NCBI GenBank assembly: GCA_025869365.1
Contig: JAOZVV010000173.1
Location: 1 to 64,000, forward strand
Length of the DNA stretch: 64,000 nt
Direction of reading: 5' to 3'
DNA from: Pseudonocardia sp.
GTDB lineage: Bacteria > Actinomycetota > Actinomycetes > Mycobacteriales > Pseudonocardiaceae
The translations under genes and the position numbers were made by a program. Under the pieces are notes generated by a model. It was not told the DNA's origin, did not search any database, and saw nothing but the letters and a program-made list of their open reading frames with translations. Positions 18,734 through 25,213 of the stretch are shown here, in pieces; within the stretch, counting starts at the first letter, position 1, and the number at the start of each line of letters is the position of its first letter.

Positions 18734-18745
18734 GTGGCATGTCAC
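18734..18745. promoter_or_regulatory. Putative GntR operator copy 1 (GTGGCATGTCAC)
   Basis: 11/12 match to the palindrome at 19531, 54 bp upstream of the GTG start (18799) of the GntR gene. Confidence 0.55.
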
Positions 18746-18798
18746 TCTCGGCGGGTGCGGGATTGCCGAGCGGGTGGTCGGGTGAAGGATCTCCGGAT

Positions 18799-19527
18799 GT
18801 GAAGGCACTGGCGCAGAACGAGACCGTCAACGCGCAGGTGCTCACCGCCCTGCGCGCCGCGGTGATCACCGGTGAGCTCGCTCCCGGGACCCTGCACTCC
18901 GTGCAGACCCTGGCCACCGAGCTAGGTGTGTCCCGCACCCCCGTCCGCGAGGCGTTGATCAAGCTCGCGCAGCAGGGGATGGTCCGGTTCGAGCGCAACC
19001 GCGGTGTCCGGATCCTGCAGACCTCGCTGCACGACCTCGAGGAGGTCTTCGCGCTGCGGCTGCTGCTGGAGCCCGCCGCGGTGCGGCGGGCGGTCACGAG
19101 GCTGGACGAGCCCACCCGCAAGGAGCTCCGCAAGCTCTTCGCCGCGATGCAGAAGGCCGCCAAGGCGGACGACGAGTTCACGATGCTCGAGCACGACCGG
19201 CGCTTCCACCGGGTCGTCCTGGAGGCCTCGGGCAACACCCGCCTCGCCACCTATGTCGACGGGCTGCGGGACATGGTGCTGCGCCGCGGCGTCTCGACGG
19301 CCCGGGAGTCCCGCAGCCTCGACGACATCGTCGACGAGCACGCGGAGATCCTGGTGCTGATCGAGGCCGGGGACAGCGACGGTGCCGCCCAGGCCATGCG
19401 GGCCCACATCCTGCACACCGCCGAGCTGCTCATCGCGCAGGAGGCGGGCGCCGAGGTGGGGGCCCTGGACATCGACCTCGGGTGGACGAACCCGGCCGCG
19501 GGGGATGCGGACATGCGCCCGGATTGA
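18799..19527 (+). CDS. GntR-family (FCD/FadR-type) transcriptional regulator
   Basis: QVLTALRAAVITGELAPGTL...LGVSRTPVREALIKLAQQGMVRFERNRGVRI wHTH plus FCD domain. GTG 18799 preferred over ATG 18739, which lies inside the putative operator. Confidence 0.9.
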   Translation: MKALAQNETVNAQVLTALRAAVITGELAPGTLHSVQTLATELGVSRTPVREALIKLAQQGMVRFERNRGVRILQTSLHDLEEVFALRLLLEPAAVRRAVTRLDEPTRKELRKLFAAMQKAAKADDEFTMLEHDRRFHRVVLEASGNTRLATYVDGLRDMVLRRGVSTARESRSLDDIVDEHAEILVLIEAGDSDGAAQAMRAHILHTAELLIAQEAGAEVGALDIDLGWTNPAAGDADMRPD

Positions 19528-19530
19528 CGA

Positions 19531-22295: not shown

Positions 22296-22299
22296 CGCG

Positions 22300-25188
22300 G
22301 TGAGCGTGCACGACCCCATCACCGGAACCGACCGGATCGCCGGACTCGTCACCGACCTGAGCGCCGCGGTGGGCGGTGACGTCCGGTTCGACGACGCCAG
22401 CCGCGCGATGTGGTCCGCGGACGCGTCGAACTACCGGAAGCTCCCGATCGGGGTGGTGGCGCCGCGCGACGCCGCGGACGTCGAGGCGGCGATGGCGGTC
22501 TGCCGGGCGCACGAGGTCCCGGTGCTGCCCCGCGGCGCCGGGACGTCGATCGCCGGGCAGGCCGTCAACACCGCGGTCGTGCTGGACTTCCGCAGGTACA
22601 TGAACCGGATCCTCGAGGTGGACCCGGACGCCCGCACCGCCCGGGTCGAGCCGGGGGTGGTCTGCGACGCCGTCCGGGACGCCGGCGCGCCGCACGGCCT
22701 GACCTTCGGCCCGGACCCGTCCACGCACAACCGCTGCACGATCGGCGGGATGATCGGCAACAACGCCTGCGGCTCGCACTCCGTGGCGTGGGGCAAGACG
22801 GTGGACAACGTGCACGCGCTGTCCGTGCTCACCTACCGCGGCGAGCGGCTCACCCTGGGCCGGGGGCAGTCGACGGGCACGATCCCGGACCGGCTCCGCG
22901 CGCTCGGCGAGCGCTACGCGGACGACGTCCGGACCAGCTTCCCGGACCTCACCCGCCGGGTGTCGGGCTACAACCTGGACCAGCTGCTGCCCGACGGCGA
23001 GTTCGACCTGGCCAGGGCCATGGTCGGCACCGAGGGCACCTGCGCCACCGTGCTGGACGCGACGGTCCGGCTGGTCGAGTCCCCGCCGGCCCGTGCGCTC
23101 GCCGTCCTGGGGTTCGCCGACGCCTACGTCGCCGCGGACAACGTGATGGTGGTCCGCGAGCACTCGCCGCTGACCATCGAGGGCATGGACGCCGGGCTGA
23201 TCGCGGCCCTGCGCGCGTCGAACCCGGTGGAGACGGCGAGCCGCGCGCTGCCGCCCGGCGGCGGCTGGCTCTACGTGGAGACGGGCGGGCAGGACCGCGC
23301 CGAGGCCGAGGCCGCCGCCCGGGCCGTCGCGCGGGCGATGAAGCCCTACGGCGCGTCGAGCCTGGTCGTCAGCGACCCGGCGCGGATGAAGGCGCTCTGG
23401 CGGATCCGCGAGGACGGCGCGGGGATCCTCACCCGTTCACCCGACGGCGGCGAGGCCTGGCCCGGCTGGGAGGACGCCGCGGTGCCGCCGGAGAAGTTCG
23501 GCGCCTACCTGCGGGAGTTCGACTCCGTGCTGGCGCGCCACGGCCGCAAGGGCGTGTACTACGGCCACTTCGGGGACGGCTGCCTGCACGTCCGCATCGA
23601 CTTCGACCTGCTCACGAAGCCCGGCATCGCGAACTTCCGCGCGTTCATGGAGGACGCCGCGGACACCGTCGTCGCGCACGGGGGTTCGCTCTCCGGTGAG
23701 CACGGGGACGGCCGCGCCCGCTCCGAGCTGCTGGACCGGATGTACCCGAAGAAGATCATCGGGGCGTTCGAGGAGTTCAAGGGCGTCTGGGACCCGGACG
23801 ACCGGATGAACCCGGGCTGCATCGTCCGCTCCGCGCGGATGGACGAGGACCTGCGCGTCTTCGTCGGGATGCCCACGATCCCGGACACCCCGCAGCTCGC
23901 GTTCGGCCACGACCGCGGCAGCTTCACCCGGGCCACCCGCCGCTGCCTGGGCGTCGGCAAGTGCGTGACGGACCACGGCGGCGTGATGTGCCCCAGCTAC
24001 CGGGCCACCGGCGAGGAGATGCACTCCACCCGCGGCCGGGCCCGGCTGCTGTTCGAGATGGCCAACGGCGAGGTGATCGACGGCGGCTGGCAGAACGACG
24101 ACGTCGCCGAGGCCCTGGACCTGTGCCTGTCCTGCAAGGGCTGCAAGCGGGACTGCCCGGTCGGGGTGGACATGGCGTCGTACAAGACGGAGTTCCTGGC
24201 CCAGCGGTACCACCGCAAGCTGCGCCCGGCGTCGCACTACTCGATGGGTGCGCTGCCGCGGTGGCTGCGGCTGGTGGGGATGCTGCCCGCCGGGCTCGTC
24301 GACGGGATCAACGCGCTCGCGAGGGTGCCGTGGCTGGCCGGGATCGCCAAGGCCGCCGGTGGGATCGCGCCCGAGCGGGGCATCCCGGAGATCGCCCGCG
24401 AGACGTTCACGACCCGGGCCCGCGCGGACTCGATCGTCGATCGCGGGCCTGCCGCTCCGGCCCCCCGCGGCCGCATCCTGCTCTGGCCGGACACGTTCAC
24501 GGACCATTTCGACCCGGACATCGCCGAGGACGCCGTCGTGGTGCTGACCGCGCTCGGCTACTCCGTCGAGCTGCCGCCGCGCGGGGTCTGCTGCGGGCTG
24601 ACCTGGACGTCGACCGGGCAGGTGGGCGCGGCCCGGCGGGTGCTGCGGCGCTCGCTGAAGACCATCGAGCCGTGGCTCAGCGCGGGTGTCCCCGTCGTCG
24701 GGCTGGAGCCCTCCTGCACGGCCGCCCTGCGGGCGGACGGCACCGAGCTGCTGCCCGAGGAGCCCCTGGCGGCCGCCCTGGCCGGCGGGGTGAAGACCTT
24801 CGCCGAGCTGCTGGCCCAGCACCTCGACGAGCTCCCGGACCTGGTCGTCGGCCCCGGTCAGCGCGCGCTCGTGCAGGTCCACTGCCACCAGCACGCGGAC
24901 CTCGGGGCGGACGACGACCGGGCCGTGATGAAGGCGCTCAAGGTCGAGGCCGAGGTGCTGGACTCCGGCTGCTGCGGCCTCGCCGGGAACTTCGGTTTCG
25001 AGAAGGGCCACTACGAGGTGTCGATGGCGGCGGCGGAACGGGTGCTGCTGCCGGCGGTCCGCGGGGCGGACGCGGACGTCGAGGTGCTGGCGGACGGGTA
25101 CAGCTGCCGGACCCAGCTGCGGCAGGCCGGGACCCGGGAGCCGGTGCACCTCGCGCAGCTCGCGGCGCGCGCCCTGGGCCTGCGCTGA
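22300..25188 (+). CDS. FAD-binding and 4Fe-4S/CCG-domain oxidoreductase (D-2-hydroxyglutarate/D-lactate dehydrogenase family, YdiJ-like)
   Basis: PRGAGTSIAGQAVN, MIGNNACGSHSVAWGKT, YYGHFGDGCLHVRIDFDL, GSLSGEHGDGRARSELL, CLSCKGCKRDCPVGVDMASYK, CCGLAGNFG. Confidence 0.87.
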   Translation: MSVHDPITGTDRIAGLVTDLSAAVGGDVRFDDASRAMWSADASNYRKLPIGVVAPRDAADVEAAMAVCRAHEVPVLPRGAGTSIAGQAVNTAVVLDFRRYMNRILEVDPDARTARVEPGVVCDAVRDAGAPHGLTFGPDPSTHNRCTIGGMIGNNACGSHSVAWGKTVDNVHALSVLTYRGERLTLGRGQSTGTIPDRLRALGERYADDVRTSFPDLTRRVSGYNLDQLLPDGEFDLARAMVGTEGTCATVLDATVRLVESPPARALAVLGFADAYVAADNVMVVREHSPLTIEGMDAGLIAALRASNPVETASRALPPGGGWLYVETGGQDRAEAEAAARAVARAMKPYGASSLVVSDPARMKALWRIREDGAGILTRSPDGGEAWPGWEDAAVPPEKFGAYLREFDSVLARHGRKGVYYGHFGDGCLHVRIDFDLLTKPGIANFRAFMEDAADTVVAHGGSLSGEHGDGRARSELLDRMYPKKIIGAFEEFKGVWDPDDRMNPGCIVRSARMDEDLRVFVGMPTIPDTPQLAFGHDRGSFTRATRRCLGVGKCVTDHGGVMCPSYRATGEEMHSTRGRARLLFEMANGEVIDGGWQNDDVAEALDLCLSCKGCKRDCPVGVDMASYKTEFLAQRYHRKLRPASHYSMGALPRWLRLVGMLPAGLVDGINALARVPWLAGIAKAAGGIAPERGIPEIARETFTTRARADSIVDRGPAAPAPRGRILLWPDTFTDHFDPDIAEDAVVVLTALGYSVELPPRGVCCGLTWTSTGQVGAARRVLRRSLKTIEPWLSAGVPVVGLEPSCTAALRADGTELLPEEPLAAALAGGVKTFAELLAQHLDELPDLVVGPGQRALVQVHCHQHADLGADDDRAVMKALKVEAEVLDSGCCGLAGNFGFEKGHYEVSMAAAERVLLPAVRGADADVEVLADGYSCRTQLRQAGTREPVHLAQLAARALGLR

Positions 25189-25213
25189 GCCCCGGCCCGG
25201 TGCAGGCCGGGGC
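25189..25213 (+). terminator. Perfect 9-bp stem hairpin directly after the FAD oxidoreductase stop
   Basis: GCCCCGGCC-CGGTGCA-GGCCGGGGC. Confidence 0.7.

What the first reader, a model, noticed from the sequence alone, without database searches (positions are those of the whole stretch)
18734..25213. Candidate gamma-butyrolactone / gamma-hydroxybutyrate (GHB) catabolic operon with an internal D-2-hydroxyglutarate redox loop
Seen: a same-strand run GntR(FCD) - MBL-fold lactonase - ADHFE1-like Fe-ADH - FmdB zinc ribbon - FAD/Fe-S D-2-hydroxyacid dehydrogenase, closed by a hairpin at 25189. Established: Agrobacterium blcABC degrades gamma-butyrolactone using BlcC/AttM lactonase and BlcB (Fe-ADH); human ADHFE1 (HOT) oxidises GHB to succinic semialdehyde while reducing 2-oxoglutarate to D-2-hydroxyglutarate; E. 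coli YdiJ, of the FAD+Fe-S/CCG fusion family, oxidises D-2-hydroxyglutarate. Inference: lactone is opened to GHB, GHB is oxidised by HOT at the expense of 2-oxoglutarate, and the FAD/Fe-S enzyme regenerates 2-oxoglutarate, passing electrons to the respiratory chain. That would be an NAD-independent counterpart of the blc pathway. No succinic semialdehyde dehydrogenase is adjacent. If the host grows on tetrahydrofuran, as some Pseudonocardia do, this would fit the lower pathway.
Basis: partly seen in the sequence, partly recalled or inferred. Interest (0 to 1): 0.82.

Follow-up and report, generated by a model that had tools for sequence, protein, structure and literature searches.

The report
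Lactone/GHB operon tied to solvent degradation
A conserved gene set in the soil bacterium Pseudonocardia appears to open gamma-butyrolactone and oxidise the resulting gamma-hydroxybutyrate without free NAD, and close relatives of its enzymes and of its DNA control site also occur, beside the solvent-attacking enzyme, on plasmids that let bacteria degrade tetrahydrofuran.

Summary
The gene run is real: GntR-FCD, lactonase-type MBL, Fe-ADH, FmdB zinc ribbon, FAD/Fe-S dehydrogenase. The order is conserved across Pseudonocardia. The Fe-ADH carries both inserts that mark the HOT (ADHFE1) subfamily and is not an NDMA-methanol dehydrogenase. The FAD/Fe-S enzyme keeps the D-2-hydroxyacid catalytic residues and shares with D-2-HG-specific YdiJ an arginine where lactate/glycolate enzymes have a hydrophobic residue. 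Two new observations support the GHB reading. First, GntR-HOT-FAD/Fe-S (69/79/75% identical) lies beside the THF monooxygenase genes on plasmids of R. ruber YYL and P. dioxanivorans CB1190, and the plasmid HOT branches inside the Pseudonocardia lactonase-operon clade. Second, a 17-bp palindrome, TGGCATG-N3-CATGCCA, sits upstream of the lactonase (its only perfect copy in 5.27 Mb), recurs in most Pseudonocardia, and recurs upstream of the THF monooxygenase operon and of HOT on the plasmid. One regulon is therefore likely. No activity is shown: transhydrogenase chemistry, D-2-HG specificity and the inducer are inferred. The host MAG has a GabD-like enzyme elsewhere and no detected THF monooxygenase. 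New variant of a known kind.

The parts
18728..18744 (.). Weaker copy of the 17-bp palindrome (TGGTGTGTGGCATGTCA), upstream of gntR GTG 18799
   Evidence: second-best hit of the site matrix in 64 kb, 20.3 bits; maximum in 30 random 64-kb sequences 17.7
18799..19527 (+). GntR/FadR-type regulator (FCD ligand domain), probable autoregulated repressor; upstream in-frame ATG at 18739 overlaps the weak operator
   Evidence: PF00392, PF07729; plasmid orthologue 63-69% identical aligns from 18799
19532..19548 (.). Putative operator TGGCATGCCACATGCCA (TGGCATG-N3-CATGCCA), 72 bp upstream of the lactonase start
   Evidence: only perfect match in the 5.27-Mb genome; at -54 to -84 in 26 Pseudonocardia loci and on THF plasmids
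19604..20416 (+). MBL-fold lactonase (AiiA/AhlS/GcL superfamily), 270 aa; HLHFDH and DAVY motifs intact
   Evidence: PF00753; best solved relatives are GcL-type lactonases, E 1e-44; NCBIfam AhlS 163.5 bits, below cut-off
20413..21711 (+). HOT/ADHFE1-type iron-containing alcohol dehydrogenase, 432 aa; 4-nt overlap with the lactonase
   Evidence: both HOT inserts; orthologues named hydroxyacid-oxoacid transhydrogenase
21717..21759 (+). 20-pair hairpin directly 3' of HOT, probable terminator/attenuator or mRNA-end element
   Evidence: -48 kcal/mol, z -5.87; longest in window; strong stems of unrelated sequence at the same place in many relatives
21780..22295 (+). FmdB-family zinc-ribbon protein with His-Gly repeat tail, possible metal chaperone
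   Evidence: PF09723; His-rich tail conserved in most Pseudonocardia and Actinomycetospora
22300..25188 (+). FAD + Fe-S + CCG D-2-hydroxyacid dehydrogenase (YdiJ-like), predicted D-2-hydroxyglutarate dehydrogenase, 962 aa
   Evidence: Pfam; NCBIfam YdiJ 437 bits, below cut-off 1350; active-site comparison
25189..25213 (+). Terminator-like hairpin after the FAD/Fe-S gene
   Evidence: z about -2.1

Best explanation
This is a chromosomal gamma-lactone/gamma-hydroxybutyrate utilisation regulon. SHOWN: the gene content, its conservation, the conserved palindrome, and the link of GntR-HOT-FAD/Fe-S to the THF monooxygenase cluster on plasmids. INFERRED: (1) the MBL enzyme hydrolyses gamma-butyrolactone to GHB; (2) HOT oxidises GHB to succinic semialdehyde using 2-oxoglutarate as hydride acceptor through a bound nicotinamide, giving D-2-hydroxyglutarate; (3) the FAD/Fe-S enzyme re-oxidises D-2-HG to 2-oxoglutarate and passes electrons to the respiratory chain, so 2-oxoglutarate is catalytic and no free NAD is needed for the GHB step; (4) SSA leaves via a GabD-like enzyme coded elsewhere; (5) GntR represses at TGGCATG-N3-CATGCCA until a pathway metabolite (GHB, GBL, SSA or D-2-HG) binds. 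GntR-HOT-FAD/Fe-S without the lactonase was recruited to THF plasmids, where the site also precedes the EthD-aldH-thmADBC operon; there a route through 4-hydroxybutyraldehyde would need no lactonase.
For: HOT subfamily inserts. HOT-FAD/Fe-S adjacency in many lineages, including an overlapping pair in M. dioxanotrophicus PH-06 near an annotated SSADH and pairs with FAD enzymes only about 45-62% identical to the window's; the adjacency label needs at least 6 changes on starred branches of the HOT tree. HOT-lactonase adjacency in Actinomycetospora and others and HOT-AttM in Deinococcus. HOT near SSADH/ALDH in Peribacillus, R. pseudokoreensis and P. hydrocarbonoxydans. THF cluster on pYYL1.1 and pPSED02 carries GntR-HOT-FAD/Fe-S, and the plasmid HOT nests inside the Pseudonocardia clade. 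Shared 17-bp site upstream of the lactonase, the thm operon and HOT. FAD enzyme keeps Arg386, Tyr432, His434, His441, Glu475 and His476 equivalents of human D2HGDH and has Arg, as YdiJ, at the Asn443 position; the in-genome paralogue L130 has Met. THF is degraded through GBL and/or GHB. Host GabD-like enzyme.
Against: No assay or expression data. The FAD enzyme scores far below the YdiJ equivalog cut-off (28% identity) and lacks the human D2HGDH Lys401. A lactate-permease gene (PF02652) follows the FAD gene in at least four Pseudonocardia. Strong hairpin between HOT and FmdB-FAD. Some Pseudonocardia have MBL-HOT without adjacent FAD, and three have HOT-FAD without MBL. The THF plasmids are near-identical to one another, so they count as one recruitment event.
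Confidence: 0.6

Rival explanations
1. The Fe-ADH is an ordinary NAD-linked GHB (or other omega-hydroxyacid) dehydrogenase despite its HOT ancestry, and the FAD/Fe-S enzyme is a separate D-lactate or broad D-2-hydroxyacid dehydrogenase with no redox loop.
For: HOT activity outside animals was described as unknown in 2016; lactate permease next to the FAD gene in L042, L043, L053, L055; hairpin separating the two parts; FAD enzyme below the YdiJ cut-off.
Against: HOT-FAD adjacency recurs in several lineages and on THF/dioxane plasmids; shared Arg with D-2-HG-strict YdiJ at the C5-carboxylate position and retained Tyr; lactate permease genes also occur next to genuine D2HGDH genes.
Confidence: 0.22
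2. The lactonase acts on signalling lactones (acyl-homoserine lactones or actinobacterial gamma-butyrolactone autoregulators), so the operon serves signal turnover rather than carbon use.
For: Closest solved relatives and NCBIfam models are quorum-quenching lactonases.
Against: No acyl-HSL lactonase equivalog cut-off is reached; coupling to HOT and FAD/Fe-S and the regulator shared with THF catabolism point to catabolism; no signal synthase was seen among the neighbours examined.
Confidence: 0.1
3. The substrate is another lactone/hydroxyacid of the same type, such as gamma-valerolactone/4-hydroxyvalerate or delta-valerolactone/5-hydroxyvalerate, with the same redox logic.
For: Families do not fix chain length; HOT in other actinobacteria sits next to acyl-CoA ligases or thioesterase genes.
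Against: THF gives GBL/GHB specifically, and the THF plasmids carry the closest plasmid-borne relatives of this set with the same control site.
Confidence: 0.15

Closest known systems
Agrobacterium blcABC (attKLM) gamma-butyrolactone operon
   Same: AttM-superfamily MBL lactonase next to an iron-containing ADH for GHB (knowledge of the blc system, not retested)
   Different: GntR/FCD regulator instead of IclR-type BlcR; ADH is of the HOT subfamily; no SSADH in the run; extra FAD/Fe-S enzyme and FmdB; lactonase scores 103.6 bits against the AttM cut-off of 390
Mammalian ADHFE1 (HOT) with mitochondrial D2HGDH
   Same: HOT subfamily inserts; the same two-step logic, GHB + 2-OG to SSA + D-2-HG, then D-2-HG to 2-OG
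   Different: Bacterial operon; the dehydrogenase is a YdiJ-type FAD/Fe-S fusion rather than the single-domain D2HGDH; activity untested
E. coli YdiJ D-2-hydroxyglutarate dehydrogenase (PMC9504171)
   Same: FAD + Fe-S/CCG architecture; catalytic residues; Arg at the Asn443-equivalent position
   Different: 28% identity; 437 bits against an equivalog cut-off of 1350; YdiJ clears SerA-made D-2-HG, this one sits beside HOT
THF (thm) catabolic cluster of R. ruber YYL pYYL1.1 / P. dioxanivorans pPSED02
   Same: GntR-HOT-FAD/Fe-S relatives (69/79/75%) and the same 17-bp palindrome
   Different: Window locus is chromosomal-type, has lactonase and FmdB, and no monooxygenase, aldH or sad
DhdR-D2HGDH of Achromobacter denitrificans (PMC8651671)
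   Same: GntR-family repressor next to a D-2-HG dehydrogenase gene
   Different: Different operator (GTTATCAGATAAC), no HOT or lactonase

Membership tests
HOT subfamily of Fe-ADHs (cd08190, ADHFE1) | insert of about 19 residues between helices 5 and 6 | tested here: met
   present against methanol DH 8zrl and two non-HOT Fe-ADHs
HOT subfamily of Fe-ADHs (cd08190, ADHFE1) | 13-residue insert between helices 8 and 9 | tested here: met
   present, shared with YYL, PH-06 and Deinococcus; absent in non-HOT Fe-ADHs and in the Peribacillus and Natrinema proteins that carry the same name
HOT subfamily of Fe-ADHs (cd08190, ADHFE1) | metal ligands (D210, H214, H297, H324) and GGGS nucleotide motif | tested here: met
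   invariant columns of A2
HOT subfamily of Fe-ADHs (cd08190, ADHFE1) | GHB:2-oxoglutarate transhydrogenase activity with tightly bound NAD(P) | not testable with these tools
   needs purified enzyme
NDMA-dependent methanol dehydrogenase (Mdo) | TIGR04266 equivalog cut-off 625 | tested here: not met
   96.5 bits
Cupriavidus-type 4-hydroxybutyrate dehydrogenase | NF058672 cut-off 500 | tested here: not met
   200.8 bits
AiiA/AttM-type lactonase superfamily | HxHxDH, later His and Asp, and the DAxY tyrosine motif | tested here: met
   HLHFDH, GHTVG, SDAVY, GHDAQ in alignment with GcL
AttM/BlcC equivalog | NF045700 cut-off 390 | tested here: not met
   103.6 bits
YdiJ D-2-HG dehydrogenase equivalog | NF049975 cut-off 1350 | tested here: not met
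   437 bits
D-2-hydroxyacid FAD dehydrogenases (D2HGDH/D-LDH/GlcD) | Arg386, His434, His441, Glu475, His476 equivalents | tested here: met
D-2-HG rather than D-lactate specificity | polar or charged residues at the C5-carboxylate positions (Thr390, Lys401, Tyr432, Asn443 in human) | tested here: inconclusive
   Tyr kept; Arg at 443 as in YdiJ; Thr390 and Lys401 positions are Ala and Trp
blc operon | SSADH gene within the operon and IclR-type regulator | tested here: not met
   no ALDH in the run; regulator is GntR-FCD

The most novel reading that the evidence does not exclude
A bacterial GHB pathway that oxidises GHB without free NAD by coupling HOT to a respiratory FAD/Fe-S D-2-HG dehydrogenase through a catalytic 2-oxoglutarate/D-2-HG loop, controlled by one GntR-palindrome regulon that was recruited to THF-degradation plasmids, where it also controls the THF monooxygenase.
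Probability: 0.5. Interest if true: 0.78.

Novelty: new variant of a known kind. Interest (0 to 1): 0.66.

Why it matters
A 2016 survey stated that what HOT enzymes do outside animals is unknown (PMC5125639). This locus gives a concrete, testable role. It also offers a likely answer to two gaps in THF biodegradation: which enzyme oxidises the 4-hydroxybutyrate intermediate, and which regulator and site control the thm operon. A free-NAD-independent route that makes and re-oxidises D-2-hydroxyglutarate on purpose would differ from the better known role of D-2-HG dehydrogenases in clearing a by-product of serine synthesis.

Tried and rejected
NDMA-methanol dehydrogenase reading rejected. THF monooxygenase in the host: none found, but the MAG is 90% complete and the search had no internal positive. 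Close SSADH by plasmid homologue: best 36%; the GabD model gives C160 at 570 bits. Second operator copy at C31:12506 (2 mismatches) set aside: with 2-3 mismatches the pattern is no commoner than its reversed control. Many 'ALDH' hits near FmdB were antisense artefacts of spurious reference ORFs; only ORFs checked are used. An all-six-frame all-against-all BLAST timed out. sigma-70 and U-tract terminator scans were uninformative in this GC-rich DNA. The inverted-repeat finder missed the 21717 hairpin, which a direct scan found. Of the two open-access papers on THF-degrading R. ruber ZM07, the 2023 one has no mention of the transhydrogenase, and the other was listed with none. thmH gave no paper; the original thm-cluster papers are not in the library, so prior naming of these plasmid genes could not be checked.
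Full report
OBSERVATION. The window lies in a 5.27-Mb, 200-contig genome; 94%-identical loci belong to Pseudonocardia.

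CONSERVATION. One scan of named genomes gave 80 loci, and 40 further regions came from the same GTDB order. Among 28 other loci with HOT at least 86% identical and enough flank, MBL is present on the same strand in 25, FmdB in 25 and FAD/Fe-S in 24. Outside Pseudonocardia the set breaks into modules. MBL-HOT-FmdB without adjacent FAD is seen in Actinomycetospora. HOT-FAD/Fe-S without MBL is seen in Blastococcus-like and other lineages, with FAD enzymes only about 45-62% identical to the window's. A tree of 127 HOT proteins needs at least six changes of the 'adjacent FAD' label on starred branches. The two enzymes thus recur together.

THE IRON ADH IS HOT-TYPE. The HOT subfamily is marked by two inserts absent from other Fe-ADHs (PMC5125639). 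Both are present here and in the YYL, PH-06 and Deinococcus orthologues, and absent from an in-genome paralogue and a Peribacillus Fe-ADH. Metal ligands and the GGGS motif are intact. Orthologues are named hydroxyacid-oxoacid transhydrogenase in public records. NDMA-methanol dehydrogenase (96.5 bits, cut-off 625) and the C. necator 4-hydroxybutyrate dehydrogenase model (200.8, cut-off 500) are not met. The same survey states that the activity outside animals is unknown.

THE FAD/Fe-S ENZYME. It has YdiJ architecture but reaches only 437 bits against an equivalog cut-off of 1350. In alignments with solved D2HGDH/D-LDH proteins and YdiJ it keeps the residues for the C1-carboxyl, metal and base (human Arg386, His434, His441, Glu475, His476; PMC7801405). 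For the second carboxylate, human Asn443 is replaced by Arg both here and in YdiJ, which is strictly D-2-HG specific (PMC9504171), and Tyr432 is kept; Thr390 and Lys401 are not. The paper says lactate and glycolate enzymes have a hydrophobic residue at 443; the in-genome paralogue L130 has Met. All 38 HOT-linked FAD enzymes whose motif was read automatically carry Tyr and Arg, and 13 divergent ones inspected show the same. This favours a 2-hydroxy diacid but does not prove D-2-HG over D-malate. Against this, a lactate-permease gene (PF02652) follows the FAD gene in four Pseudonocardia; such genes also neighbour true D2HGDH genes.

THE LACTONASE. HLHFDH, GHTVG, SDAVY and GHDAQ motifs align with GcL lactonase. 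No specific lactonase equivalog cut-off is reached, so the substrate is inferred from context.

LINK TO THF CATABOLISM. A plasmid search with HOT found R. ruber YYL pYYL1.1 at 79%, M. dioxanotrophicus PH-06 at 63% and others. On pYYL1.1 the order is ALDH, YaaH transporter, thmC, thmB, thmD, thmA, aldH, EthD, then divergently GntR, an IS, HOT, FAD/Fe-S. Plasmid pPSED02 of P. dioxanivorans CB1190 is 98-100% identical over the genes compared, and strain N23 has the same GntR-HOT-FAD, so these count as one event. The plasmid HOT nests inside the Pseudonocardia clade on a long branch, consistent with recruitment of the chromosomal set minus its lactonase. PH-06 carries an overlapping HOT-FAD pair near an SSADH. 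Deinococcus has HOT next to an AttM-named lactonase; Peribacillus has GntR, ALDH, HOT, Fe-ADH, MFS, SSADH. Published THF pathways run through GBL and/or 4-hydroxybutyraldehyde to 4-hydroxybutyrate and succinate.

A SHARED OPERATOR. A 17-bp palindrome TGGCATG-N3-CATGCCA lies 72 bp upstream of the lactonase start (19532-19548). It is the only perfect match in the 5.27-Mb genome and occurs, with at most two mismatches, at -54 to -84 in 26 of 31 Pseudonocardia-type loci examined. A matrix built without the plasmids finds its best hits on pYYL1.1 at L115:11421 (30.6 bits; 30 bp upstream of EthD, first gene of the leftward EthD-aldH-thm run) and at 12982 (28.2 bits; between GntR and HOT), with weaker sites upstream of gntR; pPSED02 matches this with one mismatch in the thm-side site. 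The highest score in thirty random 64-kb sequences was 17.7. The site also precedes HOT or MBL in Pseudonocardiaceae with GntR only about 57% identical (L156-L158, L183). The simplest reading is that this GntR controls both the lactonase-HOT genes here and the THF monooxygenase there, responding to a metabolite common to both. Binding itself is not shown.

TRANSCRIPT STRUCTURE. A 20-pair hairpin (-48 kcal/mol, z -5.87) follows HOT at 21717-21759. It is the longest hairpin in the window. At the same place many Pseudonocardia and Actinomycetospora loci have similarly strong stems of unrelated sequence, while others have FmdB directly abutting HOT. It is probably a terminator, attenuator or mRNA-end element, so FAD/Fe-S may be made at a different level from MBL-HOT.

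MECHANISM. Best supported: GBL to GHB (MBL); GHB + 2-OG to SSA + D-2-HG (HOT); D-2-HG to 2-OG with electrons to the respiratory chain (FAD/Fe-S); SSA to succinate by a GabD-like enzyme at C160 (570 bits in TIGR01780, next family 391 outside the SSADH models). FmdB, with its conserved His-Gly tail, may be a metal chaperone for the metal-dependent enzymes; this is speculation.

LIMITS. No biochemistry or expression data; the MAG is 90% complete; the GntR ligand is unknown; the original thm-cluster papers were not available. A known-kind pathway (lactonase + GHB oxidation) in a new variant (HOT plus respiratory D-2-HG re-oxidation, shared regulon with THF catabolism).

Noticed in passing
window 21717-21759: Very stable 20-pair hairpin directly after HOT; strong stems of unrelated sequence recur at the same place in many relatives (also in L057 and L062, where no FmdB was found).
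   Followed up: partly
window 22150-22210: FmdB protein ends in a His-Gly repeat (GHGHGHGHGHGHGHSH); similar tails in most Pseudonocardia and Actinomycetospora orthologues, absent in more distant ones.
   Followed up: partly
L042 12804-14624; also L043, L053, L055: L-lactate permease family gene (PF02652) downstream of the FAD/Fe-S gene in four Pseudonocardia.
   Followed up: partly
L055 3589-5058: P. hydrocarbonoxydans has an aldehyde dehydrogenase between HOT and FAD/Fe-S, i.e. a candidate SSADH inside the run.
   Followed up: partly
L068, L093, L095, L097, L107, L147-L150, L152, L173, L174, L180, L181: HOT in other actinobacteria sits near an AMP-binding acyl-CoA ligase gene, suggesting a different role or fate there.
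   Followed up: no
L197 (CB1190 contig C2) 8460-9755: P. dioxanivorans has a second HOT, 80% identical to that of M. dioxanotrophicus PH-06, on another contig, near a gene for a FAD-binding oxidoreductase.
   Followed up: no
G000:C31:12506-12522 (L195:5007): Two-mismatch copy of the palindrome near the start of a large ORF that looks like a molybdenum-hydroxylase/CoxL-type subunit (not tested); may be chance.
   Followed up: partly
window 16951-18725: MenB and an ANTAR-domain gene lie upstream on the other strand; menB adjacency is kept in many Pseudonocardia, probably just local synteny.
   Followed up: no
L119, L120: Peribacillus and Natrinema proteins named hydroxyacid-oxoacid transhydrogenase lack the 13-residue insert, so their name may be over-extended.
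   Followed up: no
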